From Heliocidaris erythrogramma (Eukaryota; Echinodermata; Echinoidea; Camarodonta; Echinometridae), in NCBI GenBank assembly GCA_025617745.1, contig CM046853.1:10804974-10868973 (forward strand): a stretch of DNA of 64,000 nt. The letters run 5' to 3'. Below the pieces are notes generated by a model, which was not told the DNA's origin, ran no database searches, and saw nothing but the letters and a program-made list of their open reading frames with translations. A program made the translations under genes and the position numbers. This document shows positions 4,025 to 63,648 of the stretch, piece after piece. The number at the start of each line of letters is the position of its first letter. Positions within the stretch are counted from its first letter, which is position 1.

Positions 4025-4616
4025 ATGGCTCATGGAAAATCCATTTCACGTCTTTCAGCAACATCATTAGGACGAGCCTTTGTCGTGGTTTTTGTTTCAA
4101 TTATCGTTGTGGTTGACGGATGTGTATTAATGAAACTAAATGAATTTGAGCCGATATCAGTGGAGAAAAGGACTGCTTTAGCTGATGTGATCATCTCAGG
4201 TACCGTACTACGTACTTTTCGAAATCAACGATCATGGGACACAACCTACCCTGCCGATGTACTCGTTGCTGATGTCTACAAGGGATATGAATTATTCGAC
4301 AACGCGACGTCGCTGGCAGAAGATGAAATTCAAGCGGAATATCGGAGCTATTACCCTCACGTTTACCGCATCGACAAATTCGGTGATCAACGACTATGCT
4401 GGGCCGATGTCGTCCCAGGAAAGAACTACGTGTTCTATCTGACGACGAACCCGAGCCCGAGAGACCTGGAGATGGCGTCTGACGGTGACGAGATGGTTGA
4501 TATGTCAGTGATGATGACCGAGGAAGGTTTAAAACTTGAGGCTAGTCACGATGCTGTATCTGGAGCTTCTATTGACTTTGATGTGAAAACAGAGGAAAAC
4601 ATTCTCAATATACTAG
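4025..4616 (+). CDS. Exon 1: signal peptide and NtA/NTR-like domain of a secreted matrix protein
   Basis: The ATG at 4025 has A at -3 and G at +4, a good eukaryotic context; an in-frame GTG at 4001 is not needed. Residues 18-30 are a hydrophobic signal-peptide core (FVVVFVSIIVVV) ending in DG before Cys33. Residues about 33-185 resemble the N-terminal agrin (NtA) module of the netrin/TIMP (NTR) fold: the order is an ADVIISGTV strand, a VADVYKG strand, a FGDQRLCW segment with Cys125, then VFYLTTNPSP. In agrin the NtA domain binds laminin; here that role is only inferred. FDNATS (91-96) is an N-glycosylation site. The exon ends at a consensus donor (CTAG|GTATGT) in phase 1, matching the phase-1 acceptor of the TSP1 exon at 51124. 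The family assignment is by pattern and moderate. Confidence 0.75.
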
Positions 4617-6299
4617 GTATGTATTAGATTTTATTTCCAGTCTGATAAAACTTTGCCTTACATGAGTTATCACTGGAGTCGTCACTCGACTTCTTGTATA
4701 ATATTATGTTGACTATCAGAAAAGTGCATTATGATATTGGTTTAAATGACATGCGTAATGAGAAGCATTGTGTAGTTGTTTTGACTCAACTTTTATGTGG
4801 ATAGATTAATGTTGACATTATCATGGTTATGGCAATGGTACTGAATAAGAAACGGATTGGTGGTTGCTTTGAAGGGGATCTTGACGCTAATAATGGTGAC
4901 GATGATCATATGATGGTGATGGTGAGATGGTGATGGAACAGTGGTGTGAATGAAGTGTTGGATGCTATGTGTGCTGAGCTAACAATCGATTGCTCATTGG
5001 TTATTGATGATAGTTATGGTACACAGATTGGTAAAAAAAAAATAGTGAGTTAAAAATCGCGTATGCTTAAGAGAAGAAGAAGAAGAAAAAAGACAGCTGA
5101 GTGATTTCATGTTTGACAAATGGTTGTAACCTTTTCATAGCATTCCATGAGGCAGTTAGTCTCAAACATTTTATGTCATCGTGGGATTGACATTACTTCA
5201 ATCCATATGATACTAATGACTATATGAATATGTAAAGAGACTACTATAAAAGCCAATGACCATCTCACGGTATAAGTTTGAAGAGGTTTTCATCTTTTAA
5301 AACAGTACGCTCAATGATTGAAGAAAAAAAGAGACTTTCTGTTCATCTTCCGATTCCATTAACACCCAACCACAAACAGTCTTAGTATGCCCTCAGCCAA
5401 GGGTGAGTTTACGGTACGTCTCAGTGGTTACCTTCATACTCACAGTATGTGACATTCATGTTTCTCTCTAGTTTCACTCCATGGTCGTAATGTAATATAA
5501 CACCTGCTCATTAGAGCAAAGTTTCAGATTTTGAATAGAAAAAAAAGGGGTGAAGTCGGGCTAGGCATTATCAGCCACATTCATTTAGCGCACCTCCAAT
5601 CTGAGGCTTCACACATTAAGTTGTACTGAGTAGGGAATGGGGGGGGGGGGGGTAATGTATATTATCTGCGATATTCGGGTTGACAGGTACCACAGTAATT
5701 GTTTTGATATTCTAGTAGGCAATTTGTAATTATTTGCGATGTATATGGCGTTACAAGGAACTCCATGCAGGTAATGTGAATATTTTGGATAGAAATATCT
5801 TACACCACCCCCCCCCCAAAAACCAAAAAAAAAAAAAATGATATAAAACAAACAAAAAATAAGTCTGGAAAAAAAGCTTATTTTGTGATTTTTGTAGAAT
5901 AAATCATTTGCCTTTCAAAAATGGTACCTGCTATACTAGATATCAAATAGATTTCGATGTGTAATTTGTCATCCTGGATTGTTTTCCGCCCCATTAGGTT
6001 TACCACAAGAGATATTAGCTCATCTGAAATGATGCCTAATAATCCCTTAGAGCGTTCAATATTTTGTTCATTCAGCAGAACAACTTTACCGTGTCAATAA
6101 TACATTAGTAGCCTTGTTCAGCAAACTGGAAGTGATTGAAGAGGTACAAGAGACGTCGTATATATATGTTGTAATAAATCAATGGTATGATAACATAATC
6201 AGAAAACACAATTTAGCGGTCTACTTCCAACATTCCAGCATTCCCAAGTGATATTGTAACATACCACAATGAACAAATAATACCAGTTTAACAGACGAA

Positions 6300-6560
6300 G
6301 ACAGTTGCATCAGTTATAACAATAAAAAATAAGATCTTATTTAGCAGGGTAGCCCCATCAGTATTAATGCTGCTGTTCCTGAGGGTCCTGCAGTTTTCAT
6401 TACCCAGCATTGCTATGTACCCGTACACCCGAGTCGAGAGAAACGAATCTGGATAAAATACCTTGTCCAATGATGTATAAGCACCGGGCAAGGATCGAAC
6501 CCATGAGCTCTCGTGTTAGAGTCAGGAGCCATCACCAATAATTATTCCAATGTGCTCCCA
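6300..6560 (-). mobile_element. tRNA-derived SINE, minus orientation
   Basis: Read on the minus strand, a tRNA-like head lies near 6485-6540 with a B-box-like GGTTCGATCC. It is followed by a body containing ATTGGACAAGGTATTTTATC and CGGGTACATAGCAATGC. This is the layout of a Pol III SINE body downstream of a tRNA promoter, and it is a relative or subfamily of the copy at 6850-7115. Boundaries are approximate. Confidence 0.6.
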
Positions 6561-6849
6561 GTTCAGTGGAGGGGTATAGTCGATAGTAGATATGCCCTAT
6601 TAGAAGATGTCCTTGTTTGTTTTTAAGGAAAGGGATGCACTTGTCCATGTACCAATAAATCTGATCAATTATGTATTGTTCAGTCAGCTTTTCCATTTAT
6701 TGCCTACTCTTAAAGGTCAAGTAATAAGAAAACGAAGTCTCTTTTAGAAAATTAATTGTAATTTGTTGAAAACCTTCTTCTACTTTGTAACTCTCATGTC
6801 CTATATTCTCTTTCACTCCTTGGATGACGATAGGTCGGTTATCATTCAG

Positions 6850-7115
6850 AGAGGTGTCGTGGCCTATAGTGGATACGTCTCCGAACTGCATGTAGATCAA
6901 ACGGTTTGCGGTTCGAGTCCCACCCACGGCACGAATGCCCTTTGGAAAGATATAAATCTGCATTTTCCATTCTCCATCCAGGTGTAAAAAATGGGTACCT
7001 GGTAGAAAGTAATTCCTTGAATGCTTTCAACGCCTTAGGGACGCGTGGCTAAAGCCACGTAGTTTGTTGGCTCCTTGAGCATCTCCTGGGATGGATATGT
7101 GCGTAATATAAATGT
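6850..7115 (+). mobile_element. tRNA-derived SINE
   Basis: The tRNA-like head at about 6853-6932 has an A-box-like TGGCCTATAGTGG and a perfect B box (GGTTCGAGTCCC). The body has CCTTTGGAAAGATATAAATC, a segment near ATGGGTACCTGGTAG, and an end near CCTTGAGCATCTCC and TGTGCGTAATATAAAT, all shared with the copy at 12772-13110. A 7-bp stem (CGTGGCT/AGCCACG) lies near 7045. It sits inside intron 1 on the gene's strand. Confidence 0.75.
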
Positions 7116-8681
7116 GGCTACTCTTTCTATCATTCAATTATCATATCATCCACAAGGATATGTTAAAAGTTATTTTATCTCGTTAATGTGAAAAATCCCG
7201 TTTCACCTATTTTTTTATTCTTAGTGCTACCAACATTAACAAATCTAACAACCTTCGAATAGCTATTGTCGCCATCATGACTTGTCAAGCGCCTTTTTAC
7301 TGGTTTTCTCCTCCCAGTCAATTGGTCTGTCGCTAATCGCTAATATACATATTGGTCATGTTGGTGTGTCGAGTTAATTCTTATTTATTCTTCTGAAGGT
7401 TTTATAGCTTTCAGTTTTGTATTCTTTCTTCAATGTACACAAACAAATGCACGAGAATCAATGCATGCCACATCTATATAATCTAAGGAGTGAATTCCCA
7501 TATCAATCAGTCAATCTGTGAAATTAATTTACCATAAAGAGAGTTTTGATCCAATTGATTAAAAGTCCTCGAACACGTTCCTCGAGCCATATATTTGTTA
7601 ATAAATCAAGCAACAGAAATTGGACGTTTGCAAATTAGTAAGTTTGTAATTCATGTTTTATTTCATAGTCGTAAAGGGAACGACAAATATCTTATCGTTG
7701 AATGATATATCTATATAATAAGCATTTCGTTTGTGAATTCGATTATATAGCAGCCTTCTTAATATTAGAGTTTAGGTCACTAGCCAAATTGCCTTTCCAA
7801 CCTCTTTTTAAAAGTTTCATCAATACGTAAATACCAGTATTAGAAAGAACAAAAAAACAGATCTTGCAGCTGACCTATAATGACATTTTCAAGGATACAT
7901 CGTGTAAGAAAAAATAAGAAAAATAAACCCGATCGAATAATAGATACTTTCCATACATTTTTTTTTTCTTTTAATGAGCCATCAGATAAGCCATTTAGAT
8001 GGTCACCGTTCTTTAACCAATAAAAAAAGAGAAATCTCGAAGTGGAAAATTGGAGGTAATTTTATTCTTTCTTTGAGCAAAGAAAGTGAACAAATAAAAC
8101 GTAACTTTTCACTAAGCACTTTATTACCCGTATCTTTTTTTATAGGGGGCCGGCTCGAATCGACTATTTAGAATTACCTTTTCTTAACTGGTTCCCTTTA
8201 AAAAAAATGGTACTTCACATTCAAAACAGATTAAATGCTCTAGTACTTTGTAATTTTGTTTTTGAAGCTATTAAGAGCTTACTGTGTCTGAAATTATAAG
8301 TTACGTACCTAAGTTACGGGCTCTTCAACAAGGCATGCGAACAGAGATGACGTTTTTCTCTCCTTTTTTTTTAATGTTTTTTTTAATCTTTTATTTATTC
8401 ATTTTCTATTTTTATTTTTTAGCTGTATTCGATTTTTGTACTTCATGAGACCTCTACGACAAAGCAAAACTTAGAGAATTGCCTCAAGCTGTACACGTTG
8501 TATTGAAATGAAAATGAAATGAAAATGATTAGGAATCATTGGTGAAGAAAATTATTAGAATGTATCATTCTATATGGATCTGGATACGTACATGTACAAC
8601 AAAGGAGGCGGGAAGAAGCTCATGTTCAAAGATTAAGTTACAGACGCAATCTAAACTTTTTTTTTGAGGAGATTAATACAT

Positions 8682-8758
8682 CGTCTGTTTGGAGCCAGAG
8701 AGGCGTTAACTCTGTACAAATGATGGGACTGAACGCCCTTCTTGCTCCAAACAGACGA
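8682..8758. repeat. Short foldback inverted repeat
   Basis: CGTCTGTTTGGAGC at 8682-8695 is the reverse complement of GCTCCAAACAGACG at 8745-8758. Pairing extends inward imperfectly to GGCGTT/AACGCC, giving arms of about 30 bases and a loop of about 20. Origin unknown; possibly a tiny foldback element. Confidence 0.75.
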
Positions 8759-9577
8759 AGTTTTTAAAAAAGAGAAAAGGAGGAAGATGGTACGCTCAGT
8801 AGGTCAATCATTTCAACGAGTCACTTCCCTCGTTTGGGATTAATACATGTCACACCTATTAGAAGGGGTGCTTGGTCCGGTAGGAGGGGGCGTCGAGGGG
8901 TGGCAAGCCGCATACCTATCTTCCTGAGGTCACCAGTCCCGAACTGACATGATACATGTAACGAGCTCTGTCTTTTGAAGTGATATGGTTGTCGAAGAAA
9001 GAATGTTTCCCACAATACAGCTCCACCTGTCCCGCGAAGGCATCAAAATATTTTCCTCGACTCGGATGTCATGTGAGGGATGTCGACCGGTCCGTCATTC
9101 GAATAGCGATCCCACCTCGGCTATTATCATGACGATGATGGGATTAAATGATGAACGTGATAATAAGATAGTCAGGTGGAATGGGGAGGAAAATCACATC
9201 CGGTGTGGACATGTCCCCTTTGGTGTTCATCAGTGGCGTAGCTAAGAGGTGGAGGGGGAGCGCATGCCCCCTATCGAATAATAAAAGGAAGGAATGCAAG
9301 AAAAAAAGAAAGGACGAGAGAGAGAGAGGGGGGAGACTGAAGAAAGTGAAAGGGGATAAGGAAAATGACATGATTACGATCCCCTCCCCCTTATTGGTAT
9401 CTTTCTTCATTCGCATTTCATCTGGTAAAAGTAGTTCACCCCAACCACCTTGACACCAGATGTACAAGAAAGAAAAAAAAATATCGAGAAGAGAAGAAAT
9501 GACGCATTAAACAAACCTGGAGAACCTTAATGAACAAGAAAAATATAGGCATTGTCATCACCATCTACACTCCTTGA

Positions 9578-9628
9578 TTACCCACGCCGATGAAATCGGC
9601 AGGGTTATGTAAAGGGCTCCGTATGTTT
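9578..9628 (+). repeat. Extra 51-bp copy of the element's 5' end
   Basis: The first 51 bases of the unit, including the GCCGAT...ATCGGC hairpin and AAAGGGCTCCGTATG, occur once more immediately before unit 1. This is a short tandem duplication of the 5' terminus, or the stump of an earlier unit. Confidence 0.85.
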
Positions 9629-10817
9629 TTACCCACGCCGATGAAATCGGCAGGGTTATGTAAAGGGCTCCGTATGTTTGTTTTTTTTTTTTTGTTTGTT
9701 TGTTTGTTTGTTTGTTTGTTTGTTTGTTTGTGTACAAGATAACAAGAGAACGGGTGAACGGATTTGCACCAAATTTTCAGGGAATGTTCAGAAAGTGACA
9801 GGAAAGAATCGATTAGATTTTGGTGATGATTGGTTGACCCCTGCACATTCTGTGTGACCTTGAACTTTTGACCCTGTAGTAAAGTATAGGAACTTCAGTT
9901 CAGAGAGTGACAGGAAAGAAACTAGAAAGATTGATGACCCCAAACTTCGCCTGCAGATGCAGAAATATTTGGGCCAATCAAAACATTCATTACTTCTTCT
10001 CACCAAAAGTCTATTTCAGGTTTATGAATTTTAGAAGACTTTTAGACCCATTATTTGCCATTTCACTTCAAATCCGTACGAGCCTGCAATGAATATTCAA
10101 AGCAACGTATCCCAGCAACAAGGGATTTTTTGCACTCGAACTGTACTCTCGATGCGAAATCGAAAGCGGCTAGGTATACGGTATTCGTATAGCCTAGCAC
10201 GTCTAATTTCTCCTCTATTTCTTATCTTCTGTGCATTTCTGTTTATTTTCCCCGGTTCTTTCCACTTTGTTGTGGAAGTTTTTGTGATTTATTTTATCCT
10301 GGTGGACGTGTAGTACGTGATTTTAATTGTTTTCGGTGAAAATCTGGTGAGTTTCTTCGACGTGAGTGTCTATCGCACTCGCGTGTGTTGATCTGAGTGA
10401 GTGGTTGATCGCTGTGTACGTATATACACAGCACTGTCGCGAAGTGCCCTGGGGTTGACTGTAGTAATGAGTGAATAAGCTCTGTTCCTCGCATGCACGT
10501 CATTTTGAAGTCGAGATCCAACTTCTTTTGTCGTCATATTTATTTTATCCAAGCCCGATGAAAACAAAACAACAACCCGAATTGCAATGTAAAGATAGAA
10601 CATGAATACATTTACTAACACACTGACATGTCACTGAACACTGAATACAAATTGCTAACATTTTTTTTCTCATCACGCCACGCTCTCTGACATGTCTAAT
10701 CAATTACTTTTAGGGGAGGGATGTTTCAATAATAAAATATCTTTTTCAGAAGAATTTTTTCAAGGGTGGGGACACACAAAGCTATGACCTGGATTATGGC
10801 AATTTTTTTTTTTTTTT

Positions 10818-10849
<32 letters not shown>

Positions 10850-10961
10850 GATGTGCCTCTTGTTATCCCCTTTGAATGGCTACTGCTTACAAAAATAATC
10901 GCAACAAAACAAAACCTATTGGGTTAAGGCGTGGGTCTGCCGCCTTTGACGGCCTTTCTAG
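9629..10961 (+). mobile_element. Helitron-like array, unit 1
   Basis: The unit is 1333 bases. From left to right it has the 5' hairpin, a (TTTG)n tract at about 9678-9731, a unique body, a T-run followed by a G-run (about 10802-10848), and the 3' hairpin 10926-10946 with CTAG at 10958-10961. Short open frames in it recur in unit 2 only because the DNA is duplicated; none has a known domain. Confidence 0.65.
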
Positions 10962-12304
10962 TTACCCACGCCGATGAAATCGGCAGGGTTATGTAAAGGG
11001 CTCCGTATGTTTGTTTTTTTTTTTGTTTGTTTGTTTGTTTGTTTGTTTGTTTGTTTGTTTGTTTGTTTGTTTGTTTGTGTACAAGATAACAAGAGAACGG
11101 GTGAACGGATTTGCACCAAATTTTCAGGGAATGTTCAGAAAGTGACAGGAAAGAATCGATTAGATTTTGGTGATGATTGGTTGACCCCTGCACATTCTGT
11201 GTGACCTTGAACTTTTGACCCTGTAGTAAAGTATAGGAACTTCAGTTCAGAGAGTGACAGGAAAGAAACTAGAAAGATTGATGACCCCAAACTTCGCCTG
11301 CAGATGCAGAAATATTTGGGCCAATCAAAACATTCATTACTTCTTCTCACCAAAAGTCTATTTCAGGTTTATGAATTTTAGAAGACTTTTAGACCCATTA
11401 TTTGCCATTTCACTTCAAATCCGTACGAGCCTGCAATGAATATTCAAAGCAACGTATCCCAGCAACAAGGGATTTTTTGCACTCGAACTGTACTGTACTC
11501 TCGATGCGAAATCGAAAGCGGCTAGGTATACGGTATTCGTATAGCCTAGCACGTCTAATTTCTCCTCTATTTCTTATCTTCTGTGCATTTCTGTTTATTT
11601 TCCCCGTTCTTTCCACTTTGTTGTGGAAGTTTTTGTGATTTATTTTATCCTGGTGGACGTGTAGTACGTGATTTTAATTGTTTTCGGTGAAAATCTGGTG
11701 AGTTTCTTCGACGTGAGTGTCTATCGCACTCGCGTGTGTTGATCTGAGTGAGTGGTTGATCGCTGTGTACGTATATACACAGCACTGTCGCGAAGTGCCC
11801 TGGGGTTGACTGTAGTAATGAGTGAATAAGCTCTGTTCCTCGCATGCACGTCATTTTGAAGTCGAGATCCAACTTCTTTTGTCGTCATATTTATTTTATC
11901 CAAGCCCGATGAAAACAAAACAACAACCCGAATTGCAATGTAAAGATAGAACATGAATACATTTACTAACACACTGACATGTCACTGAACACTGAATACA
12001 AATTGCTAACATTTTTTTTCTCATCACGCCACGCTCTCTGACATGTCTAATCAATTACTTTTAGGGGAGGGATGTTTCAATAATAAAATATCTTTTTCAG
12101 AAGAATTTTTTCAAGGGTGGGGACACACAAAGCTATGACCTGGATTATGGCAAATTTTTTTTTTTTTTTTTTTTTTTGGGGGGGGGGGGAGAGATGTGCC
12201 TCTTGTTATCCCCTTTGAATGGCTACTGCTTACAAAAATAATCGCAACAAAACAAAACCTATTGGGTTAAGGCGTGGGTCTGCCGCCTTTGACGGCCTTT
12301 CTAG
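10962..12304 (+). mobile_element. Helitron-like array, unit 2
   Basis: A 1343-base copy of unit 1 joined directly to its CTAG end. Differences are mostly length changes in the TTTG tract (about 11010-11077), the T/G homopolymers (about 12154-12189) and one small GTACT duplication near 11491. The 3' hairpin is at 12269-12289 and CTAG at 12301-12304. Confidence 0.65.
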
Positions 12305-13249
12305 TTTGTTTGTGTGTTTGTTTGTTTGTTTGTTTGTGTACAAGATAACTAGAGAACGGGTGAACGGATTTGCACCAAATTTTCAGGGAATGTTCGGATA
12401 GTGACAGGAAAGAATCGATTAGATTTTGGTGATGATCGGTTGACCCCTGCAAATTCTGTGTGACCTTGAAGTTTTGACCCAAACTTCAGTTCGGATAGTG
12501 ACAGGAAAAAATCGATTAGGAAAAGAATCGATTAGATTTCGGTGATGATCGGTTATAGGAACTTCATTTCGGATAGTTTTTTTGTTTTTAAGAATATTTT
12601 ATTACTTCCTTTTTAAAAATAACATTTTTCACAATAATCAAGGTAAAATACACAAACAAATATATTCACATGCAGTATCATTGTGCCAAATTACGTAATA
12701 ATAACAATAAGTAACCATAATATTTAACATGCATAGACTGTAGATTATGCCAAATCTGGAAATCTGGAAATCTGTGGATCAGTGAATAAGTCCCCGGACT
12801 GTGAACCACGAGGTCCGGGGTTCAAATCCCACCGCAGCACTAGCGTCCTTTGGCAAGACGTTAATCTACATTTGCCACTCTCCACCCAGGTATTAAATGG
12901 GTACCCGGTAGGATGGCGAAAGGTTATGTCCTTTGCTTAGCATGTCTGCGCTTACAGGCGACTGGCTGGAATGCTCCCCAGGGAGTGGAGAATGTGCATA
13001 CACTGTGTGCGGGCGTGCCAGAATCCAATGACCGGGGGTAATAATTTGCGCCTTGAGCATCTAATCAGGATGGAAAAGTGCGCTATACAAGTCACATGTA
13101 TTATTATTATTTATTGCGATAAAAAAAGGAGAAAAAAATATAAAATATAAAATATAGTGACAGGAAAGAATCGATTACGGAAAGAATGCAACGACTCGAT
13201 CTGTAGCGCCGCTAAGGCGTGGGTCTGCCGCCTTTGACGGCCTTTCTAG
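12305..13249 (+). mobile_element. Helitron-like array, degraded unit 3
   Basis: This copy lacks the ACCCACGCC 5' end, starts in the TTTG tract and is diverged (a GTGACAGGAAAGAATCGATT motif is repeated several times). It is interrupted from about 12570 to 13150 by foreign DNA including a SINE. It regains the same tail, with hairpin 13214-13234 and CTAG at 13246-13249. Confidence 0.6.
12772..13110 (+). mobile_element. tRNA-derived SINE inserted in the Helitron-like array
   Basis: The tRNA-like head at about 12773-12840 has a canonical B box (GGTTCAAATCC). The body contains GGCAAGACGTTAATCTACAT, ATGGGTACCCGGTAGG and GCCTTGAGCATC, and it ends in GCGCTATACAAGTC followed by a TATTATTATT tail. This is the most complete copy of the family in the window; related copies are at 6850 and, in reverse, at 59866. 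Its insertion dates after the third array unit. Confidence 0.8.
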
Positions 13250-13445
13250 TTTATAAATGTTTTTATATCATCATTCAACGTCAGAATGTGAATTATATTT
13301 TCAAGTTAAGAGTTATCTATACTTGCGTGAAGGAACATGTTTGTTTGATTAAACCTATGTTAGAGTATACCTCCATGTTAACATTTCATATTTTGTTGAT
13401 ACCTTTTTTTTCCTCTCCCAACGCCTCTCTCGGTTCTAACTACAC

Positions 13446-13479
13446 CCCCTCTCTCTCTCTTTCTTTCTCTCTCTCCTTC

Positions 13480-13510
<31 letters not shown>

Positions 13511-13660
13511 GCCTCTGTCTCTGTATGTCTGTCTGCCTGTCTCGGTCTGTTCTTCTCTCTCTCTCTCTCTCTCTTCTGATTCCTGGTATCTATCCCTGCC
13601 TCTATCTGTCTCTGTCTCCTTCTCCGTCTCTTCGTTTCTCTCTCTTTCTCTCAGTCAAGC
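13446..13660 (+). repeat. CT-rich microsatellite
   Basis: An impure (CT)n/(CTGT)n tract. The long + strand frame across it (13219-13743) is Leu/Ser-rich low complexity with no domain and is not a gene. Confidence 0.9.
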
Positions 13661-16373
13661 CCCTGCAACGTCTACATTCACCCCGCTTACCTTTTCCTAT
13701 GTTTCCCCCCTCTCATGCCTGCCCCCACTTTAATACTGTCTGAAGTGTCTCTAAGCCTGCTTCCTGGCCAACAATTTCAAACCCAAGATCCGTCCCATTA
13801 TCAACAAACTAATTATGAGTAATTTGAACTATCTAGTGCCACTAAACATGTTGTGAAGTTGTTACCTGTGCAGTTTCGTGGGCGTTGATTTTCAATCTGT
13901 GTTTGTTAGGGCACCTTGGTCACGAGCAACATTCGTAAGAGAGAATGAAATTGCTATTTGTCAGGAGATGTAGACATTTACCTTGAAATCAAAAGTATGC
14001 CTTTCCACTTTCTGCATTATGTGATCATTTTTATCAAATACTTTGTAAACTCCTCACTGGGTTGAGAGTTTGATAGATTCCATGTTTGTTCGTAATTGAG
14101 TGACAGCAGCGTCTAGCTCTATAGAACATTGTTCCTATAAACAGTAAAGGAGAAATCGCACTTATCTTACTGAACCCTTAATTTTATTACAGAAATGGTA
14201 CAAATAAATGCAACCCAACCTTTTTCTTATAAATAAGCAAGAATGATATTCAAAAGTATGTTATGGTCCCATTTTCTGTAATTTCAAAGAAATTACCTGT
14301 ACAGTTCGTCATACATATCATACAATACTTTTATGACATTCTTTGTTTGTAATATTTCTTATCATCATAATGAGCATATAAGACTTTGATGGATATTTGT
14401 TCAGAGATATTATACCTCAATTCATCAAGTGATTAACATGTTAAGGGTTAATCATTGTTTGATTAACCAAAGTCTAATCAGGATTTTTGACACCGAAGGA
14501 TTACATATACTATATCCTGAATGTAGCATGTCTTCTGTTGTATTCACATTTTATTTTTCCTCCTCGGACTATAATATTAATACATGCCAACAAGGGGAAA
14601 GCTCCAACATAGTTTTATAATTATTTTGGAGGTATACAGGCATTGACCGGTTTCATTTAATTTCCAGTCCAATCTTCGATCGTTGATGAAATATCGTATT
14701 TGTGATGACTGTATACTTTGTGGGAATTTATGTTATTTTGCCAAGTAATACACAGGCACAAAAACGATATCCCTATTATTTTCGAATATTTTTTTTCCTC
14801 TGAAATATTTTTCTAATATTTCTGGTGCAATTTTCGTAGATCGCGTATATTTTGATTGTTATACATAGTTCTTACTGTCTCAAAAATAACATTTCGGTAT
14901 TGCATGATGGCCTCATGTCGTTGGCAGAAGACAAAACGTAATGAGTACAATCTTCTTCGACCATCATCATGTTGCCCCTTCAAGTTCAAAGTTAGTTCAT
15001 CACTCACGAAAGTAGAGGCTTAAACCAAGGAACCAAGTCCCTATAACCATACCACTCCATATCAAACTTGACTTTCATTCTCCCTCCTACGTACTGGGAG
15101 AAAAATCGATAGTGCACCAGACATTCTTCACCCCCTGAAATGTTAACCAAATTACCATGAAAATAGGGAGTTAAAAGTATTTTTCAGATAATAAATCACG
15201 GTTTCATCAAACAAATGTGACATGCTTTGATTTACGTCTACCGACCCTATCTCTATTTACATGTTAGGTAGAGAATTGTTGATATTTGGTCGACATGTGC
15301 TATCTCATTGTATACACTATAGACGATGTCGGGAAAAGTCATGGTCGCGATGGCGTAGCCCCTGGCCTGTTCAGGGGCAACCGCCCTAATGATAAACATC
15401 AATGGTGCCACGAATGACAAGGAGTTCAGTTCAGTTCAGATCAGTTTGCATGGTAATTTTAACAGTAAAATCCTAAATGTAATTGTATCGGCAAGGACAT
15501 TAGAGCCATATGAAATAGACCTCAACAAAAACGAGTTTAGAATTATTTTCTACCTTAATGTTTCTTGGCCCATGACATGAAGTAAAGATAATGTTGCCGT
15601 CTAACAACAATGAGAGCAGCTTATCAGTATATCCTTCTCCGTCTGCATGCACAATCACTAGAAATAACATCGCTATGAGACGCCATGTTAGCTTGGGCTG
15701 AGTGCTATTATAGCTGAGGAAAGTGTGTGATTAATGATTAGGGTCATAAGACACATTTCACTGACGTGAAATGTTGTCAAGCTTTATAAATCATCTTCAC
15801 TTCTCGCAGAACTGATGGTTTCGTGCGCTGCACAGAGTTTGTATGTTCACCTCCATCAAGCACTTCAAGCGAACAAAGACAGAACTTCACAAGACCATTT
15901 TAAATGGGGAGGGGGGTTGTCGGACTAAATATGCCGACAATTTCGCTGGAAAAAAAAATCCCTCAAAATAAAAAGGGGGTCATCAACAGAAATTCCAAGA
16001 TTTTATGAGAAGAATGATTGTAACGTTTGTGACAGAATAGAGTATGAAGTGATAAAGGAATGTGCACCTGTGCACGGTGATTCGGAGTTCACGTTGAAGC
16101 GGCAGTCAGGTTCGATTCCACTAACTCATGTTAACATTCTGAGCACTTCACCAGTAATGATCGTGATAGACAAGGAGATGAACAAGCATCATGGTGTTGA
16201 TTTGATGGGAGTTTAATTTCTACCTGTCATCGCATGCTTAGGAGCAGATCGCAGTCATTCATTTTAATCAACGAGATTGGCATATGAGTGGGAGAAATCA
16301 TGAAAGAAAGAGAGTGTGGAATTTTATATGACATGTATGAGAGATCGACAAAAATAAGGAACAACGGGGTAGC

Positions 16374-16496
16374 GTTTCATCAAGTGTTTTGTCAGTGATT
16401 TTTACCGACAACTGTGATAAGCTACTGAAATCCTTGCATCTGATTGGCTGAGAGCAAATTTGTCGGTAAAATCACTGACAAAACACTTGATGAAAC
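16374..16496. mobile_element. Small foldback element
   Basis: Near-perfect inverted arms of about 37 bases begin GTTTCATCAAGTG and end CACTTGATGAAAC, enclosing a short loop that contains CTGATTGGCTGAGAGCA. A second copy lies at 30592-30708, so this is a dispersed family. No coding capacity. Confidence 0.8.
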
Positions 16497-18295
16497 ACTC
16501 CCCTGATCTCCAAGATAGAGAGTGAAAATGAAAATGAGATGCATGCCTACTTCAGAAAGGAATTCAGATAGGAATTAAGAAATTATCGAAACAAGTTTAA
16601 TGAAAGAGGTATACCAGCGATAATATAAATGGAGAGGCCAGAGAAAAAGATAAAGGATAGTAGACAGAAGAGAAAGAGGAAGAGAGAGGAGTTGAGGTGA
16701 GAGATTGAATTTTGGACCACATTCTCTACCAGCAGGAGTAAAGAGGCTTTCCACTAAATTAGATACCACCTCCTAAGCGGCCAATGCACCATAATTCAGT
16801 TACTTAAACGTGTCAAAATGGATTCATCTTGAGGTTTGCATTTGACTACCTTATTCCACTGAAAGCTGCAACGTAATCATAAGCAGTTTCTGAGAAAAGC
16901 AAATGAAAGGAACGGTCAAGAGGATACCACTGAGATGAGTTTACACTTGAATCTAAATGATGTTGTCATGGTGATGATGATTCATTCAGGGAACACTTCC
17001 CTGATTCATTCCACCCCGATTCTGAGAAGATTCATTAAATTGAAGTGTTTGAAAGCTTAATAAACTTGGTATTGCTGAATTAAAGAATGTTACAAAAACC
17101 CAACACCTGATATATTACTTAAATGACGAAGACTATTTTGCCCTAGATTTCGTTCTAATCAAGAATGCACAGTAGCAATATCAGGCCCGATATAATTATT
17201 TGATTCCTCTTTATTTTAGGAACCCACTTTTCCAGTGCATATGAATTTTGACGACGTCCTGTAAATTAAACACCAGGTTTGTGTCCATTCATGGCGAAGA
17301 TCGGTCAAGCGTGGGACCGTTCTAGTGATCATATAGAGTGGCCGTGACAATGGGATAAAATCTCTGTGTCATACGTCAAGTGGTCTTGTCTGGATAACCC
17401 GTTCAGTACTTGAAATCTATATGTCCAGTGGATCTTGATTGGACATGGTCAAGGTTCAGAAACGGGATTTATGGTTTAAATTTCCAACGTAAAGGGCACA
17501 TTATAATTTATAGAATGACGGTAATACGGTATGGGAGGGGAGAGAGTTGTAAATTGCTCACTTTAATCTGAAATCGATTAGAAGCAAAGGAATACAATGA
17601 CAGAAAACCAAGAGGGCAGAAGGACTGATCGACAAGATTATCAATCGCTATATTATACGATACTGACAATGTAAATCAGCCTTCATGAAAACAAATGTAA
17701 ATTACACTTTATTTATTGTGGAATCATTTCTAAGTCACTTTGATTTCGGTTTCTTCATTTAAAAATATCTTCGATCGTAATTATTCTTTAAGATACAGTA
17801 ATTTGTTTTCAAGGGTTTAAAATCTTTAATTTCTGTGTATTCAACAATATTACATTGCATCTCAAGTGTATCTGTATCGTGTATTGAATTGGAGATACGA
17901 TACTGCACCCCCTGCTGTTATCTCAGTACACACTGTCCATCATGATGGAACCCTAACTGGGCCGAAATATATTGGAGTGGTCACATTAATGACGACTGAT
18001 GGTCAAGTGTCTGGCCATACGGCCTATCATAACAATGGTCATGAAAGTCTTTTCTAACGGTCAAGTGACAAGTGGTAACTGTCTGGACACCCCACGATGA
18101 TCATGGATCAACAACTTCCAATCAATACCCTGGAAGGCACCGCATTGATGTTGGGCTCTTATTGTTTTAGTAAGTCCCCATTAGGTACTGTATCTTACTG
18201 AAATTTAAGCCAGTCCTTGATGTATCATGGCAGTCTCCTCGACTATCTTTTTTTCGAGTGGCTAGAAGTAGAAACTCATTCTTTTACAAAAAGAA

Positions 18296-18910
18296 ATGCG
18301 TTCGTACGAATCTCACTGTTCACTGTTCGTACGAATTCCAGAGTTCGTAGAGATTCATAGATGGGGCATATATTCTTACGGCCTTCTTACGAAGTTCGTA
18401 TGAACGCCGTTTAATTCGCAAGAACAACATAAGACCTTCATGAGAAACGAAGTGATTTTCGGTTATACAATGGCCCTAGAGTTCGTACGTTTTCCGTAAG
18501 AATGCCTTGAGTTATTCTTTCGTCAAACTTACGGCCATCTTACGAATTTTGTTGTCGCAAGATGGTCGTATGTGCAACTCACGGCACTCTCAAGTCATTC
18601 GTAAGAAGATCTTACAAATTTTTGTATATTTTGTTTGGTTGCAAAAAGGCGCTGCCGTGTACTGTCGAAAATTATGTGACTGTTGAAAGTTTGAGGATTT
18701 GAACTTCGTGCGTTTGGCTTTATACCCCCTAAAACTCGACATTTGCACAAATTGTGTACGTGCGCCTTACGACCACCTTACGAACGCCTTACAAACGCCA
18801 ATAATCGTTTGTAAGAGCCCGTACGGATCTCCGTTCGTAAGGTGTTCTTACGACCGCCGCAAGAGCCCTCTATGAACAAATTAAGGCGTTCTCCCAATTA
18901 TCGTAAGAAT
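18296..18910. repeat. Dense cluster of CTTACGA/TCGTAAG motifs
   Basis: About eighteen variants of CTTACGA, TTCGTAAG and TTCGTACGAA occur in both orientations in about 615 bases. The motif is partly self-complementary, so many alternative hairpins can form. I recognise no family; it may be a decayed foldback transposon or a satellite-like element. Confidence 0.7.
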
Positions 18911-20510: not shown

Positions 20511-20765
20511 TTAACGTGTTGCAATTTGATATAGGTGACAATGTGATACTTCTGTTGGCTCTGTTGGAATATCTTTCATAGCAAAATTTATCAGACAAGT
20601 ATTGATATCACGAGCTATTTGTTGTCTATTAGATATAATATTCAAAATATATGAGAGATAAGCACGATGACATAACTTAACAATGCTTTTATTGGTTTTT
20701 AGCTTATTATCTGAATGCATATACAAAGCTATCTCGTATGCCAGTTTAACCACCCTGCGAATCAA
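20511..20765 (-). pseudogene. Possible non-LTR retrotransposon reverse-transcriptase fragment
   Basis: The 84-codon minus-strand frame reads like the segment after the RT core of CR1/L2-type LINEs: a KLAYEIALYMHSD stretch (compare the common NLGV-LD motif), KLKTNKSIVKLCHRAY, then LNIISNRQQIARD. The later residues no longer match the expected LDYCN-GLP block, and the frame ends at a stop, so it is a relic. Recognition is from memory of the family pattern only. Confidence 0.35.
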
Positions 20766-46417: not shown

Positions 46418-46419
46418 CT

Positions 46420-49400: not shown

Positions 49401-51123
49401 TGTTTCATGTTCAGAAAAAAGGTTTGCGGTACAACCATGTGAGTTGTTTCATGTTAGCCATTATAAAAATATGTTTGTTTGTTTGTTTGTTATTTGTTTT
49501 GTTTGTGTTTTTTGTAACAATTTCTCTCGAATGTTAACTTTTTTATGTATAAAAGTTAGTGGTTTCGGTCTTTAGATGTATAAGATGATCAGAATTGTAT
49601 AAATTTCTATCACATTGTAATCTCCAAACATACATCATGAAGAGTGCATTACTAGGAGTATCACATAAAGGCATAATTTTATCAGGTCAGCGCATGGGAC
49701 TGGGTTGGTTTGGTATCATAATAATGTCTTAGAAGTCTTGAGGAACTAATTAATAAGGGAAGGGATTTTAAAAGCCACAATCTTGCATTATATCTCTTCG
49801 TCCATCATGCGTCATATGCAGAGCTCGCTTTCAGGATTATTCACCAGGTGTATGCCGGTTAAGGTCAAAGTCAGAAAGAGGTCATTACAACATGGCGTGG
49901 TTTGAATCATATCAAGGTGTCTTTATGAACTGATTCACGAAGATGCTTGTTACTTCAGGTCATGTAGATCATTAAATACATCTTTTTAAAGGCAACCAGA
50001 TGATTTTGGTCCATTTCATTAAGTTGGTCGTGTTTCTAAGATCTTACATGTACCTTCACCACTGCTGGCATTCAGTAAGAAAGAACGTCATGTCAGAAGA
50101 ATAATAATGTATTAACTAATATGCAGTTTAACTTTATAATGTCCACTAAACAAACGATAAAATATTTGGATCTTCGCTTAGATGCTCTAAGGTATATTTC
50201 AGATGACTAACGGTGCAATTTGACAAGAGATATGAAAGATTGATATCCAGTGGAAATATATCTGTGTTTTTTTTCTCTATATACCCATACTCATTGAAAA
50301 TGATCTTTCTCAAATACCCATGTGTAGTCTCGACAGGAAATACTGAACGCTTACCGCAGGCTTGAAGAATACGTCTGAAAGGGGAAGGGGCTTCCATTAT
50401 TTTGAGGTCCAGGTGCAGAATTTTGTTTTAAAACTGCTATCTATGAATGGGACAATAAATCGGAAAATACTGATGAAAAAGTAGGGAATCCGCAGTTTTC
50501 ATACACGCATATCACTAACGTCAGTTCATCATGATTTATCCTGTTTTATCTTTCTTATACAGGAAGACATTTTTAAAGAAAATATGTACGTCTTGTTCTT
50601 CATCTTTAGATTACAGAGGTAATGATATTAATTGGATTTGTAAATCGCCTTTTCCTAAGAATACAAACCTGTGAATATTACTTTTACATTGGGCTTTAGC
50701 CGAGCTACCGTGATAATGTGTTCAATCATTCAACAAATCTCTCTACTGGAACCCAATTACTTCACATGGGTCGAGAGGGGCAAATATCCATTAAATGTCT
50801 CGACAAAGGACGTTTGTGTCGTGACACACCCGGTACCGCGTGGTCCTTCTTCAGGTGGCTAATCCCCTGGACTGCGACATCTCTACGATATCCTCCAGAA
50901 GATATATGACGAACCATGATAAATACATGTCAATTATAAGCATAAAGTGACTATACACGGGATCGTTCGCATGTGACAAGTACAGAGTCCGATGCGAACA
51001 TCAATAAAATTCACCACGATGTTATTGCAATTGGTGATTTTGTTGTTGTTTTGTTGTTGTTGTTTTTTTAATTACTGATTTGTTATATCCTTTTAACTTC
51101 TTTTGTTCTTTTTTCCCACCTAG
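46420..51123. other. End of intron 1, no further gene recognised
   Basis: AT-rich DNA with G-run (46657-46667) and C-runs (47092-47108 and 48765-48778), an 8-base (TCTCAATC) repeat near 47393-47416, a (TTTG) patch near 49470-49500 and a TTG repeat near 51040-51066. The minus-strand frame at 50146-50397 is non-repetitive but unrecognised. Confidence 0.5.
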
Positions 51124-51273
51124 GTTGGAGACCTTGGGCTTCGTGGTCATCATGTAACAAGGATTGTGGAGGGGGTCATCAGACACGACGACGGGTGTGT
51201 ATTCGTGATGTTCCTAATGCCTGTGAGGGAGATGCCAAGCAGAGACGACAATGTAATACCTTCGATTGTGCAG
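51124..51273 (+). CDS. Exon 2: thrombospondin type-1 repeat A
   Basis: The acceptor CACCTAG ends at 51123 and the donor is CAG|GTAACC. The 150-base exon is phase 1 on both sides. It encodes a single TSP1 module: WRPWASWSSC (a W-x-x-W-x-x-W C-mannosylation motif), then CNKDCGGGHQTRRR and six cysteines ending TFDCA. The usual O-fucose acceptor in C-x-x-(S/T)-C is Asp here (CNKDC), unlike the two later repeats. TSP1 modules act extracellularly in adhesion and in binding glycosaminoglycans or growth factors. It follows the NtA domain directly in the protein. Confidence 0.9.
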
Positions 51274-56198: not shown

Positions 56199-56273
56199 GG
56201 TGATATTGATCAACTGGTTTTGATGAATGACACATCAACAGCAGAACTACAGTGCCTCCCACAAGAAAGACGA
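56199..56273 (+). CDS. Exon 4: end of the TSPN domain
   Basis: A 75-base exon, phase 0 to phase 0, between CACTTTAG and a CGA|GTAAGC donor. It reads GDIDQLVLMNDTSTAELQC, completing the F-E-G-D-I-x-Q-L-L motif that ends collagen-type TSPN domains, with the final conserved Cys. The split after F-E of that motif fixes the exon 3/4 join. Confidence 0.9.
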
Positions 56274-56829: not shown

Positions 56830-57087
56830 TTCCCCGACCTGCTAGACATTGCATCGACCGCCCCACCCTCGAGCTCAGTGAACGGCATGGATGCTTCTAT
56901 TGATATTGGACTTGTGTACGACAACCTATTCGATCCCTTCCTCTTCATGGACACAGAAACGACCACGTCTTCGCCCATGGACACGACGTTGCCTTCGTTC
57001 TCGCAAGTCGACATCACCGAAGACGGACAGAACGAAGCGAGTGTGTCACCGACTATGCCTTCAACCACTCAAATAATAACTAACAAG
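56830..57087 (+). CDS. Exon 5: Ser/Thr/Pro-rich linker
   Basis: An 86-codon exon, phase 0 to phase 0, acceptor CTCCCAG, donor AAG|GTGAAG. It starts FPDLLDIASTAPPSSSVNG, is acidic in the middle (ASIDIGLVYDNLFDPF) and ends in Ser/Thr/Pro-rich sequence (SVSPTMPSTTQ). No cysteines and no known domain; it looks like a flexible, potentially O-glycosylated spacer after TSPN. GC content is clearly above the flanking introns, which supports coding. Confidence 0.8.
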
Positions 57088-57435: not shown

Positions 57436-58126
57436 ATCATGACTCAAAGACCAGAAACATCAACTCCAGCGCTGACAAAACTAACTGTCAAATGGGACAA
57501 TGGAGCATTTGGAGTAGACGAATCAAACAGTGATATTATCAACAACATCATGAATCCTGAGGAATCAGTAGAAATTGGATTTGAAGGTGAATCGCCCATT
57601 GATTACAATCATGCTACAGCCGAACCAGTAACTGTTGACAGAGGTCTAGATGTCTCTGGACGTTCGGGTGACACCATGCAGGGAACGGATGATTCAAAAT
57701 ACTGGACGATAACTCCTACCACTCCGACGTCGCGACGAGGACCGAGCGCCTACTCGCAGATTAAGGTCATCCCAACAACGATCACGGAATCAACAACACA
57801 CAAAATGACCACAACAAAGAAACCAACCTCACTCCCGACAAATACCGAAGCTGCAACAACGGTAACAACGACACAAGCCCAAACAACAACCACTTCAGCA
57901 CCAACAACTAGAACAATAGCGACGACCAAACCGTCGTCGACGACTGTCTCGGTACAGTCGACATCGGAAATGAATGACATCCTAGGCGATGAGGATGTTG
58001 ATAATAAGAGTGAAAGACCACTGAATGATGGTCTGATCCCACATCCTCCTGGTGATGCACTCTCACCTGTTGCTCCTGCCAATGTCCCACGGCCATCCAT
58101 CTACCAATACGGTAGACCACATGATG
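57436..58126 (+). CDS. Exon 6: mucin-like Thr-rich linker
   Basis: Acceptor GTCCCTTAG, phase 0; donor GATG|GTATGT, phase 1. The exon encodes 230 residues. The middle is a Thr-rich stretch (TTTKKPTSLPTNTEAATT and TTQAQTTTTSAPTTRT), expected to be densely O-glycosylated. It ends with a Pro-rich segment (LIPHPPGDALSPVAPANVPR). No cysteines. It separates the NtA/TSP1/TSPN head from the TSP1/EGF tail. Confidence 0.85.
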
Positions 58127-58567: not shown

Positions 58568-58732
58568 AAAATGCAAACTGGTCGACATGGAGCACATGTA
58601 GCAGGACGTGTGGTACTGGAACCAGGTACAGGTACACAGTCTGTAGCGGAGATTCGAACCTTCCAGACTGCAGGAATGGACGCGGGATCGCGGCACAACA
58701 TAAACCATGTCAACTGAACAATAATTGTAAAG
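58568..58732 (+). CDS. Exon 7: thrombospondin type-1 repeat B
   Basis: 165 bases, phase 1 on both sides, acceptor ATGATTAG, donor AAAG|GTCTGT. It encodes NWSTWSTCSRTCGTGTRYRY and six cysteines in TSP1 order. W-x-x-W and CSRTCG are the canonical C-mannosylation and O-fucosylation sites. The exon equals the domain, so it could be duplicated or skipped without frame change. Confidence 0.92.
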
Positions 58733-59761: not shown

Positions 59762-59857
59762 ATTACTGTATTGGTGGATGTTTGAATGGAGGAACGTGTA
59801 TGCCTGGAGGTGTGTGTCAGTGTCCCTCTGGATATAACGGACAGATGTGCGAGAGAG
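59762..59857 (+). CDS. Exon 9: EGF-like repeat 1
   Basis: 96 bases, phase 1 on both sides, acceptor TTGATATAG, donor AGAG|GTAAGA. It encodes YCIGGCLNGGTCMPGG then VCQCPSGYNGQMC: six cysteines spaced C-x3-C-x5-C-x5-C-x-C-x8-C, the compact type found in tenascin and WIF1. There is no Asp/Asn calcium-binding signature at the start. Confidence 0.92.
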
Positions 59858-61096: not shown

Positions 61097-61189
61097 AGCT
61101 TTGCCAGCATTCATGTAAGAACGGTGGAAGGTGTGTTGGAAGGAACAAGTGTCTATGCCCATATGGTTACTTACCACCGTTTTGTGAGC
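61097..61189 (+). CDS. Exon 10: EGF-like repeat 2
   Basis: 93 bases, phase 1 on both sides, acceptor ATCATCAG, donor GAGC|GTAAGT. It encodes LCQHSCKNGGRCVGRNKCLC then PYGYLPPFC with six cysteines in the same compact spacing as repeat 1. One-exon-one-domain organisation. Confidence 0.92.
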
Positions 61190-61536: not shown

Positions 61537-63497
61537 TCCCCGGCAGTATGCCGGAGGATACTTTGGATTCAGCAGCGTTTCGCCGCCGCCGCGTCACATT
61601 CTTGTGTGCGCTCTAGCGGTCACATTTCTCGACGAATTTTTTTCAGACTTCCTGTGGACGTGTATCTTGGTAAAATCTGGACCCCTATAGTTTCTGGTGA
61701 TGCTGCCCCCAGTGTTCCGTCTTTTATAGGGTAAAAGGCCATATTTTTTGGGATAGTTTGTGTGCGCTCTAGCGGTCACATTTCTCAACGGATTTTGTTC
61801 AAATTTTGTATGAAGGTGTCTCTTGGTAAAATCTGGAACCCTATAGATTTTGGTGATGCTGCCCCCAGTGTTCCGTCTTTTATAGGGTCAAAGGTCATAT
61901 TTTGATAGATGTCTTGTGTGTACTCTTGTGTGCGCTCTGGCGGTCACATTTCTCAACGGATTTCGTTCAAATTTTGCATGAAGGTGTCTCTTGGTGTAAT
62001 TTAAAAACCTATAGTGTTTGGTGATGCTGCCACCAGTGTTCCGTCTTTTATAGGGTCAAAGGTCATACTTCAGGGCATGGCGTGATTGCACTCTGCAGGC
62101 CACATTTCTCAACGGATTTTGTTCAAATTTTGTATGGAGATGTATCTTGGTATAATGTACACATGTTTAATTTTTGGTGATGCTGCCCTCATTGTTCCGT
62201 CCTTTATAGGGTCAAAGGTCATTTTTCCATTTCTTGCACTCTTACTTCTGCATTTCTCGACGGATTTCGTTCAAATTTTGCATGAAGGTGTCCCTTGGTG
62301 TAATCTAAAAATCTGTACTTTTTGGTGATGCTGCCACCAGTGTCCCGTCTTTTATAGGGTCAAAGGTCATACTTCAAGGGATGGCATGAGTTCACTCTGC
62401 AGGCCACATTTCTTGATGGATTTCTTTCAAATTTTGTATGGAGATGTATCTTGGTATAATCTATACATCTTTACTGTTTGGTGGTGCTGCCCTCATTGTT
62501 CCGTCCTTTATAGGGTCAAAGCTCATTTGTCCCTTTTGTGCACTCTTACTTCTGCATTTCTTGACGGATTTCATTCAAATTTTGTATGGAGATGTATCTT
62601 GGTATAATCTACACATATTTAATTTTTGGTGATGCTGCCCTCATTGTTCCGTCCTTTATAGGGTCAAAGGTCATTTTTCCATTTCTTGCACTCTTACTTC
62701 TGCATTTCTTGACGGATTTCGTTCAAATTTCGCATGAAGGTGTTTCTTGGTGTAATCTAAAAACCTATAGTTTTTGGTGATACTGCCACCAGTGTTCCGT
62801 CTTTTATAGGGTCAAAGGTCATACTTCAGGGAATGGCGTGAGTGCACTCTGCAGGCCACATTTCTTGATGGATTTCTTTCAAATTCTGTATGGAGATGTA
62901 TCTTGGTATAATCTACACATCTTTCTGTTTGGTGATGCTGCCCTCATTGTTCCGTCCTTTATAGGGTCAAAGCTCATTTGTCCCTTTTGTGCACTCTTAC
63001 TTCTGCATTTCTTGACGGATTTCATTCAAATTTTGTATGGAGATGTATCTTGGTATAATCTACACATATTTAATTTTTGGTGATGCTGCCCTCATTGTTC
63101 CGTCCTTTATAGGGTCAAAGGTCATTTTCCATTTCTTGCACTCTTACTTCTGCATTTCTTGACGGATTTCGTTCAAATTTTGCATGAAGGTGTCTCTTGG
63201 TGTAATCTAAAAACCTATAGATTTTGGTGATGCTGCCACCAGTGTTCCGTCTTTTATAGGGTCAAAGGTCATACTTCAGGGCATGGTGTGAGTGCACTCT
63301 GCAGGCCACATTTCTTGATGGATTTCTTTCAAATTTTGTATGGAGATGTGTCTTAGTGAAACCTACACATCTAATTTCTACACCATCCTTTTGTTTGAGG
63401 GAGGGGATGGGGGAGGGTCTTTGTCCCTCCTTCAAATCGCTGCCAGTGCCGGGGGATACATTTAGCATTGCGCGGCCCCAGCAATGCACATTTCTAG
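61537..63497 (+). mobile_element. Non-autonomous Helitron in intron 10
   Basis: Inserted between A (61536) and T (63498), starting TCCCCGGCAGTATGCCGG and ending with a 7-bp hairpin (GCATTGC at 63465-63471, GCAATGC at 63481-63487) and then CTAG at 63494-63497. These are the diagnostic Helitron ends (5'-TC, 3' hairpin then CTRR, A|T target). TGCCGGGG near 63450 mirrors the 5' end. No Rep/helicase is encoded; almost the whole body is tandem repeat. Confidence 0.85.
61600..63360 (+). repeat. Tandem array of about eleven 148-168-bp units with trimeric higher-order structure
   Basis: The marker TTTTATAGGGTCAAAGG, in variant form, recurs with its GGGT at 61729, 61885, 62053, 62209, 62357, 62513, 62661, 62809, 62964, 63112 and 63259. 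Spacings are mostly 148 or about 156. From 62209 on, three-unit blocks of about 451-452 bases repeat (62209, 62661, 63112). The short open frames are by-products of the repeats. Confidence 0.88.
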
Positions 63498-63552
63498 TTG
63501 TTTGAATGACTTAGTCTATGGTTATCTCTAATTTTATTTGTTATATTTACAG

Positions 63553-63648
63553 CGATGTGCAACCCTCCTTGTCAGAATAATGGACGATGTATACACCCAG
63601 GAAGATGTGTGTGTCCTAAGGGATATACTGGTCCCGCCTGCAGTAAAC
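63553..63648 (+). CDS. Exon 11: EGF-like repeat 3
   Basis: 96 bases, phase 1 on both sides, acceptor ATTTACAG, donor AAAC|GTACGC. It encodes MCNPPCQNNGRCIHPG then RCVCPKGYTGPAC, six cysteines in the same spacing as repeats 1 and 2. It is the last exon in the window. Its phase-1 end means the reading frame must continue beyond the right edge, probably with more EGF repeats. Confidence 0.92.

What the first reader, a model, noticed from the sequence alone, without database searches (positions are those of the whole stretch)
4025..63648. Unusual domain mosaic: NtA/NTR - TSP1 - TSPN - mucin - TSP1x2 - EGFxN
Splice sites and phases join eleven exons into one secreted protein. I know no vertebrate protein with this order: NtA is typical of agrin, the collagen-type TSPN of fibrillar collagens V/XI, and TSP1 plus compact EGF of other matrix proteins. 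It may be a lineage-specific matrix or adhesion protein.
Basis: partly seen in the sequence, partly recalled or inferred. Interest (0 to 1): 0.75.

Follow-up and report, generated by a model that had tools for sequence, protein, structure and literature searches.

The report
Second NtA gene, a matrix mosaic
This stretch holds most of one animal gene for a secreted matrix protein that combines the laminin-binding front end known from agrin with thrombospondin, collagen-type, mucin, EGF and EMI modules, an order I could not find described.

Summary
The domain order is real and the gene is longer than the finding says. Exons at 4025-63648 encode a signal peptide, NtA, TSP1, a collagen-type TSPN/LamG, a Thr/Ser-rich linker, two TSP1 and three EGF domains. 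In flanking DNA of the same assembly the gene runs on with three more EGF exons, a Cys-rich piece and a C-terminal EMI domain: 17 exons, about 1159 codons, stop at window coordinate 67425. The next gene downstream has its own signal-peptide exon at 80032.

The one other NtA exon found in the assembly lies in what looks like agrin, on another contig. It has the same plan (start, signal peptide, NtA, phase-1 donor) and lies about 125 kb before the first follistatin exon, so the 46.5-kb intron 1 here is not suspicious.

Caveats: from its strongest acceptor, exon 3 holds one base too many; weaker acceptors avoid this. No transcript and no second species could be tested.

Most likely role: a laminin-anchored, self-associating matrix linker (inferred). 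Novelty: known modules in a combination I could not match; NtA outside agrin and a C-terminal EMI are the unusual points. Interest 0.45.

The parts
4025..4616 (+). Exon 1: start codon, signal peptide (residues 1-32 by eye; a Cys follows), NtA domain; phase-1 donor
   Evidence: Pfam NtA 36.1 bits vs cut-off 25.1; 31% identity to the other NtA exon of this assembly, BLASTP E 3e-12 for the pair; A at -3 and G at +4 of the ATG
4617..51123 (+). Intron 1, 46.5 kb, repeat-rich; no other Pfam domain found on the + strand
   Evidence: Pfam on all three + frames read through stops: only the TSP1 exon beyond its 3' end is hit; initial-exon and exon scans
51124..51273 (+). Exon 2: TSP1 domain, phase 1-1
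   Evidence: Pfam TSP_1 39.8 bits vs 21.6; splice scores
55433..55954 (+). Exon 3: most of the TSPN/LamG domain; 5' border uncertain (strongest acceptor 55433, in-frame alternatives such as 55512, 55533, 55584); main frame supported from about 55508; contains an RGD
   Evidence: frames, acceptors; collagen IX 2uur; Laminin_G_3 with E4; below cut-off without E4; RGD
56199..56273 (+). Exon 4: end of the TSPN/LamG domain, phase 0-0
56830..57087 (+). Exon 5: Thr/Ser-rich linker, phase 0-0
   Evidence: no Pfam match; exons 5-6 together T+S 28%, no Cys
57436..58126 (+). Exon 6: Thr/Ser-rich, mucin-like linker, phase 0-1
58568..58732 (+). Exon 7: TSP1 domain, phase 1-1
   Evidence: Pfam TSP_1 30.7 bits
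59187..59351 (+). Exon 8: TSP1 domain, phase 1-1
   Evidence: Pfam TSP1_ADAMTS 26.5 bits vs 23.8; TSP_1 20.4, just below cut-off
59762..59857 (+). Exon 9: EGF 1, phase 1-1
   Evidence: EGF_2
61097..61189 (+). Exon 10: EGF 2, phase 1-1
   Evidence: EGF_2
63553..63648 (+). Exon 11: EGF 3, phase 1-1. The gene continues beyond the window (window coordinates extended): E12 64041-64136, E13 64669-64764, E14 65294-65389 (EGF 4-6), E15 65910-66009 (Cys-rich), E16 66816-66938 and E17 67359-67425 (EMI domain, stop)
   Evidence: EGF_2; further exons from L009 of the same contig; EMI 27.4 bits vs cut-off 25

Best explanation
One gene of about 63 kb encodes a secreted matrix glycoprotein of about 1159 residues: signal peptide, NtA, TSP1, TSPN/LamG, mucin-like stalk, two TSP1, six WIF1-like EGF, a Cys-rich piece and a C-terminal EMI. 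Shown here: exons, domains, splice signals, stop codon, single copy at the sensitivity used, and a separate downstream gene. Inferred from the known behaviour of the modules: the N-terminal NtA docks to the laminin coiled coil of basement membranes, as agrin NtA does. The TSPN/LamG, TSP1 and EGF modules contact collagen, heparan sulphate or receptors; the O-glycosylated stalk holds them apart. The basic C-terminal EMI domain drives self-association. It would then work as a multivalent linker between basement membrane and neighbouring matrix or cells. Its first exon probably arose from a copy of an agrin-type NtA first exon, which brings its own start codon and signal peptide and ends in phase 1, set in front of phase-1 modules.
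For: Domain hits above curated cut-offs for NtA, three TSP1-type domains, LamG (E3+E4 together), EGF and EMI. Seventeen exons with GT-AG sites, start to stop. No competing domain on the + strand of intron 1. Of five initial-exon rows in 3.9-51.1 kb, only E1 has a strong ATG context and an HMM-recognised domain. NtA in only two places of the assembly at that sensitivity, here and C13. The C13 exon has the same plan and phase and is followed about 125 kb later by ten Kazal hits on the same strand; the first can be entered in phase 1. Downstream, a signal-peptide exon at 80032 starts another gene. No hydrophobic stretch of transmembrane size after residue 40. The EGF array's best solved relative is WIF1, E 1.2e-30. 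Laminin attachment by agrin NtA: PMC10381214, passages. EMI in multimerisation: PMC11949838, passages.
Against: No RNA evidence that exon 1 splices to exon 2. The start of exon 3 is unresolved; from its strongest acceptor the frame breaks. NtA similarity is modest: solved agrin chains scored only E 1.7-1.8 by phmmer, below an unrelated chain at 1.1, and the genome-wide NtA profile search missed this exon. The laminin-contacting helix of agrin was not tested in this NtA. The EMI domain has 4 cysteines where the passage read gives three disulphides for EMI, and it matches only profile positions 1-57 of 69; with E15 attached it passes the cut-off by 0.2 bits. E15-E17 were chosen partly because their phases fit.
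Confidence: 0.55

Rival explanations
1. Two genes: the NtA exon belongs to a separate transcript, and the TSP1-TSPN-mucin-TSP1x2-EGF-EMI protein starts from a first exon that I did not recognise.
For: Intron 1 is 46.5 kb, about ten times the next longest, and no transcript was available. A first exon coding only a short signal peptide could hide; one search lists two candidates with poor ATG context at 23054 and 25938, besides two rows from a TGTT repeat, and three rows on the minus strand of the same stretch as a chance level.
Against: No Pfam domain on the + strand between the two; phases fit; the agrin-like gene of the same assembly has an even longer gap after its NtA exon.
Confidence: 0.15
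2. The protein is a secreted signalling modulator rather than a matrix linker: its WIF1-like EGF array and TSP1 domains hold it on heparan sulphate and tune Wnt or related ligands.
For: The EGF array's best solved match is WIF1; TSP1 and EGF repeats carry O-fucose and C-mannose consensus sites (motifs recalled).
Against: No WIF domain in the protein pieces scanned; compact EGF arrays are widespread, with Delta-like 1 and teneurin-3 next in the list; NtA, TSPN and EMI point to matrix anchoring.
Confidence: 0.2
3. A decaying gene or a broken allele, not a working one.
For: From the strongest acceptor, exon 3 reads into an in-frame TAA.
Against: The other sixteen exons are open, with splice sites, 6 cysteines in each of the three TSP1 repeats and 36 in the six EGF repeats; weaker acceptors or a short intron would keep exon 3 in frame; an assembly error would also explain it.
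Confidence: 0.06

Closest known systems
Agrin (NtA domain)
   Same: N-terminal signal peptide plus NtA in one first exon with a phase-1 donor; both NtA exons found in this assembly share that plan
   Different: None of the Kazal_2 hits listed lies within the gene, and Pfam finds no SEA or Kazal domain in the protein; TSP1, TSPN, EGF and EMI instead
WIF1, teneurin and Delta type EGF arrays
   Same: Six compact EGF_2-type repeats, one per phase 1-1 exon; WIF1 is the best solved match; the Pfam teneurin EGF model also matches well (145 bits, cut-off 65)
   Different: No WIF domain; no DSL match above its cut-off; no other teneurin domain matched
Collagen IX / fibrillar-collagen N-terminal TSPN domain
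   Same: LamG family; 2uur E 1.8e-10
   Different: No collagen triple helix or COLFI domain in the protein
Thrombospondins 1/2
   Same: TSPN-type domain, TSP1 repeats and EGF in that order
   Different: No TSP type 3 repeats or TSP C-terminal domain; NtA and TSP1 precede the TSPN
EMILIN/Multimerin (EMI) superfamily
   Same: One EMI domain, slightly above the Pfam cut-off
   Different: EMI is C-terminal here; the passage read in PMC11949838 says it is consistently singular and N-terminal

Membership tests
Agrin | N-terminal NtA domain after a signal peptide | tested here: met
   NtA 36.1 bits vs 25.1
Agrin | Array of Kazal/follistatin domains | tested here: not met
   None in the protein; 0 of 109 Kazal_2 hits lie inside the gene (which scores only its best candidates)
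Agrin | NtA binds the laminin coiled coil | not testable with these tools
   Needs protein; no structure model could be obtained
Thrombospondin | TSP type 3 repeats and lectin-like C-terminal domain | tested here: not met
   The gene ends in EMI; no such Pfam match in any piece
Fibrillar collagen | Triple helix and C-propeptide | tested here: not met
   No match in any piece of the protein
WIF1 | WIF domain | tested here: not met
   No match
WIF1 | Array of compact EGF repeats | tested here: met
   E 1.2e-30 to WIF1; six EGF_2 stretches
EMILIN/Multimerin | EMI domain | tested here: met
   27.4 bits vs 25 for the EMI piece alone, 25.2 with E15
EMILIN/Multimerin | EMI at the N-terminus | tested here: not met
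   Last exons before the stop; rule read in PMC11949838 passages

The most novel reading that the evidence does not exclude
A non-agrin family of NtA proteins: the agrin first exon, with its own start codon and signal peptide, was copied and captured a train of phase-1 modules ending in a C-terminal EMI. This made a natural laminin-anchored, self-associating linker, comparable in design to engineered laminin linker proteins (recalled). Because the predicted mature N-terminus is a cysteine of an NTR-type domain, a TIMP-like protease-inhibiting role is a bolder variant that is not excluded.
Probability: 0.35. Interest if true: 0.62.

Novelty: new variant of a known kind. Interest (0 to 1): 0.45.

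Why it matters
NtA is the part of agrin that anchors it to laminin. A second gene that uses NtA in front of quite different modules would show that this anchor is portable in nature, and that a signal-peptide-bearing first exon can be shuffled like an internal module. It would add a candidate basement-membrane linker for the animal group concerned.

Tried and rejected
Rejected: that the gene continues into the lectin/kringle/transmembrane gene at 80-142 kb; a signal-peptide exon at 80032 and an EMI plus stop at 67425 separate them. Rejected: that this gene is agrin; the agrin-like gene lies on C13. Rejected: TAL-effector chains listed for the EMI piece (best E 1.7e-8), because 0 of 8 rows had a stretch passing on its own; no EMI chain was listed. 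Corrected on re-check: I first placed the frame change of exon 3 at 55549-55562; searches show homology in the second frame from about 55508, so it lies further upstream. About 25 residues of the joined protein (near residues 264-288) are therefore probably in the wrong frame, and one of the seven N-glycosylation motifs (residue 277) falls away. A splice solution for exon 3 is not excluded: one search lists 13 in-frame short-intron pairs and 5 in-frame acceptors, all weakly scored.

Led nowhere: tRNA and Rfam scans, no hits; NCBIfam, no hits for the N-terminal part; viral contigs, no match for E1. Seven paper searches gave no description of this domain order in what they listed. I read passages only of PMC10381214, PMC3927612, PMC4224354 and PMC11949838; the others I saw only as listings, and subscription journals are mostly not held. 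Not reached: structure prediction, genome-wide EMI search, COX1 search to name the phylum. In one search the two short test stretches (4000-4640, 63400-64000) were given in the wrong frame and count as nothing.
Full report
What was checked. The window lies at C1:10804974-10868973 of an assembly of 1.064 Gb in 26 contigs. All eleven exons of the finding are there, on the + strand, with GT-AG borders. Home-made splice scores for E2-E11: donors 0.0 to 7.8, 9 of 10 above the window's 95th percentile (1.4); acceptors -1.5 to 7.9, 6 of 10 above theirs (2.3). The exon scan finds them too, E1 and E3 only in their 3' parts and E11 in another frame; its codon scores were trained on these same exons, so it is no independent proof.

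Domains. Pfam recognises NtA in exon 1 (36.1 bits, cut-off 25.1), TSP_1 in exons 2 and 7, TSP1_ADAMTS in exon 8, Laminin_G_3 and Laminin_G_2 in exons 3-4 together, and EGF_2 in exons 9-11; exons 5-6 match nothing and are 28% Thr+Ser with no Cys. Exon 3 without exon 4 stays below the LamG cut-offs. The only solved chain near exon 3 is collagen IX alpha-1 (2uur, E 1.8e-10), which supports 'collagen-type TSPN' but not V/XI in particular. Solved agrin chains match exon 1 only weakly (E 1.7-1.8, with an unrelated chain first at 1.1), yet the NtA exon of the assembly's own agrin-like gene aligns at 31% identity, E 3e-12 for that single pair, and E 0.03 genome-wide.

Exon 3. From the strongest acceptor, 55433 (score 7.9), the entering frame reads to a TAA, while the frame that leaves into exon 4 is one base over. 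Read in that second frame, 55478-55954 matches 2uur better than 55562-55954 does (44.6 against 37.6 bits), and the alignment starts near 55508. So the frame change, if it is one, lies upstream of that. One search shows weaker ways to stay in frame: acceptors at 55512, 55533, 55584, 55620 and 55644 (scores -0.3 to -11.2) or one of 13 short-intron pairs of 28-160 nt. I cannot decide between a surplus base in the assembly, an allele and such splicing. The 41 residues of the first frame (55435-55557) match no Pfam family.

Where the gene ends. Flanking DNA of the same contig (L009) adds exons at 64041-64136, 64669-64764 and 65294-65389, each one EGF in phase 1-1, then 65910-66009 (Cys-rich), 66816-66938 and 67359-67425, ending in a stop. 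The last two exons match the Pfam EMI domain at 27.4 bits (25.2 with the preceding exon) against a cut-off of 25, over profile positions 1-57 of 69. They contain 4 cysteines, so this EMI is degenerate or short. The exon choice at this end used phase agreement, so the EMI hit is the independent support. A signal-peptide exon at 80032 with a phase-1 donor and a C-type lectin exon at 81650 begin the next gene.

Is exon 1 part of it? Intron 1 is 46.5 kb. Read through stops in all three + frames, it gives no Pfam match at E 0.01; the scan did pick up the TSP1 exon just beyond it (29.2 bits), which shows that the method works. The minus strand of the intron was not scanned with Pfam. A scan for start codon, hydrophobic stretch and phase-1 donor over 3.9-51.1 kb gave five rows: exon 1 with a strong context, two from one repeat, and two with poor context; the minus strand gave three. 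The best control comes from the same assembly: the other NtA exon found (C13:2920975, 87.8 bits) has the same plan of start, signal peptide, NtA and phase-1 donor. Ten Kazal hits follow on the same strand, the first at 3045715, about 125 kb on; its exon has a phase-1 acceptor and an agrin-like follistatin sequence (likeness recalled). A long first intron after an NtA exon thus has a precedent here. The NtA profile search itself missed the window exon, so a further diverged copy cannot be excluded; the protein search found only these two. The TSPN piece is single too: beyond its own two exons the next match is 38% identical with E 0.04.

How it probably works (inference). Signal peptide and no later hydrophobic stretch of transmembrane size: secreted. 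NtA: attachment to laminin, as stated for agrin in PMC10381214 (passages). TSPN/LamG, TSP1 and EGF: contacts with collagen, heparan sulphate or receptors; one RGD sits in the TSPN, which could be chance; four WxxW motifs and two classic O-fucose sites in TSP1 repeats. The EGF array is closest to WIF1 among solved chains (E 1.2e-30). EMI: described as taking part in multimerisation and as consistently N-terminal (PMC11949838, passages); here it is C-terminal, with 15 basic and 1 acidic residue in the last 95. Together this suggests an oligomeric linker anchored to basement membrane.

Known or new? It fails membership of agrin, thrombospondins, fibrillar collagens, WIF1 and EMILINs on at least one defining feature each (see Membership tests). 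PMC4224354 lists NtA among Pfam domains found only in matrix proteins of the human proteome, and PMC3927612 calls agrins unique within their LamG family in having it (passages). Seven full-text searches listed no description of this order. Whether unnamed orthologues sit in animal protein databases could not be tested, so the claim is a new combination of known modules, not a new kind of protein.

Noticed in passing
L011-L017, window coordinates about 80032-141725 (outside the window): Next gene downstream: signal-peptide exon, then C-type lectin and kringle exons (two lectin pieces and one kringle piece, joined from predicted exons, above Pfam cut-offs; more by eye, plus a PAN-like exon that Pfam did not match) and a transmembrane-like exon near 141.3-141.7 kb. 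An unusual membrane lectin/kringle mosaic.
   Followed up: partly
L010, window coordinates 70592-75885, - strand (outside the window): Long open frames of 1255 and 520 aa with reverse-transcriptase/RNase H-like and zinc-knuckle-like sequence (by eye): a LINE-type retrotransposon that looks intact.
   Followed up: no
61602-63373: Tandem array with a unit of about 148-156 bp, 11.6 copies, inside the intron between EGF exons 10 and 11.
   Followed up: no
9788-10630 and 11135-11981: Direct repeat about 1.35 kb apart inside intron 1, with identical open frames and a small indel between the copies.
   Followed up: partly
G000:C13:2920975-3069641: Agrin-like gene of the same assembly with about 125 kb between the NtA exon and the first follistatin exon.
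   Followed up: partly
L021, window coordinates about -9475 to -9110 (outside the window): Open frame resembling the end of a TMBIM/Lifeguard family protein (by eye); probable upstream neighbour on the same strand.
   Followed up: no
G000:C5 9.81/9.98 Mb and C7 43.41/43.44 Mb: Pairs of TSP1 hits with equal or nearly equal scores and similar spacing, suggesting recent segmental duplications or uncollapsed haplotypes.
   Followed up: no
L018-L019, window coordinates 159860-160195 (outside the window): Open frame resembling a Cys-loop ligand-gated channel ligand-binding domain, 25.3 bits, just under the Pfam cut-off of 26.
   Followed up: no
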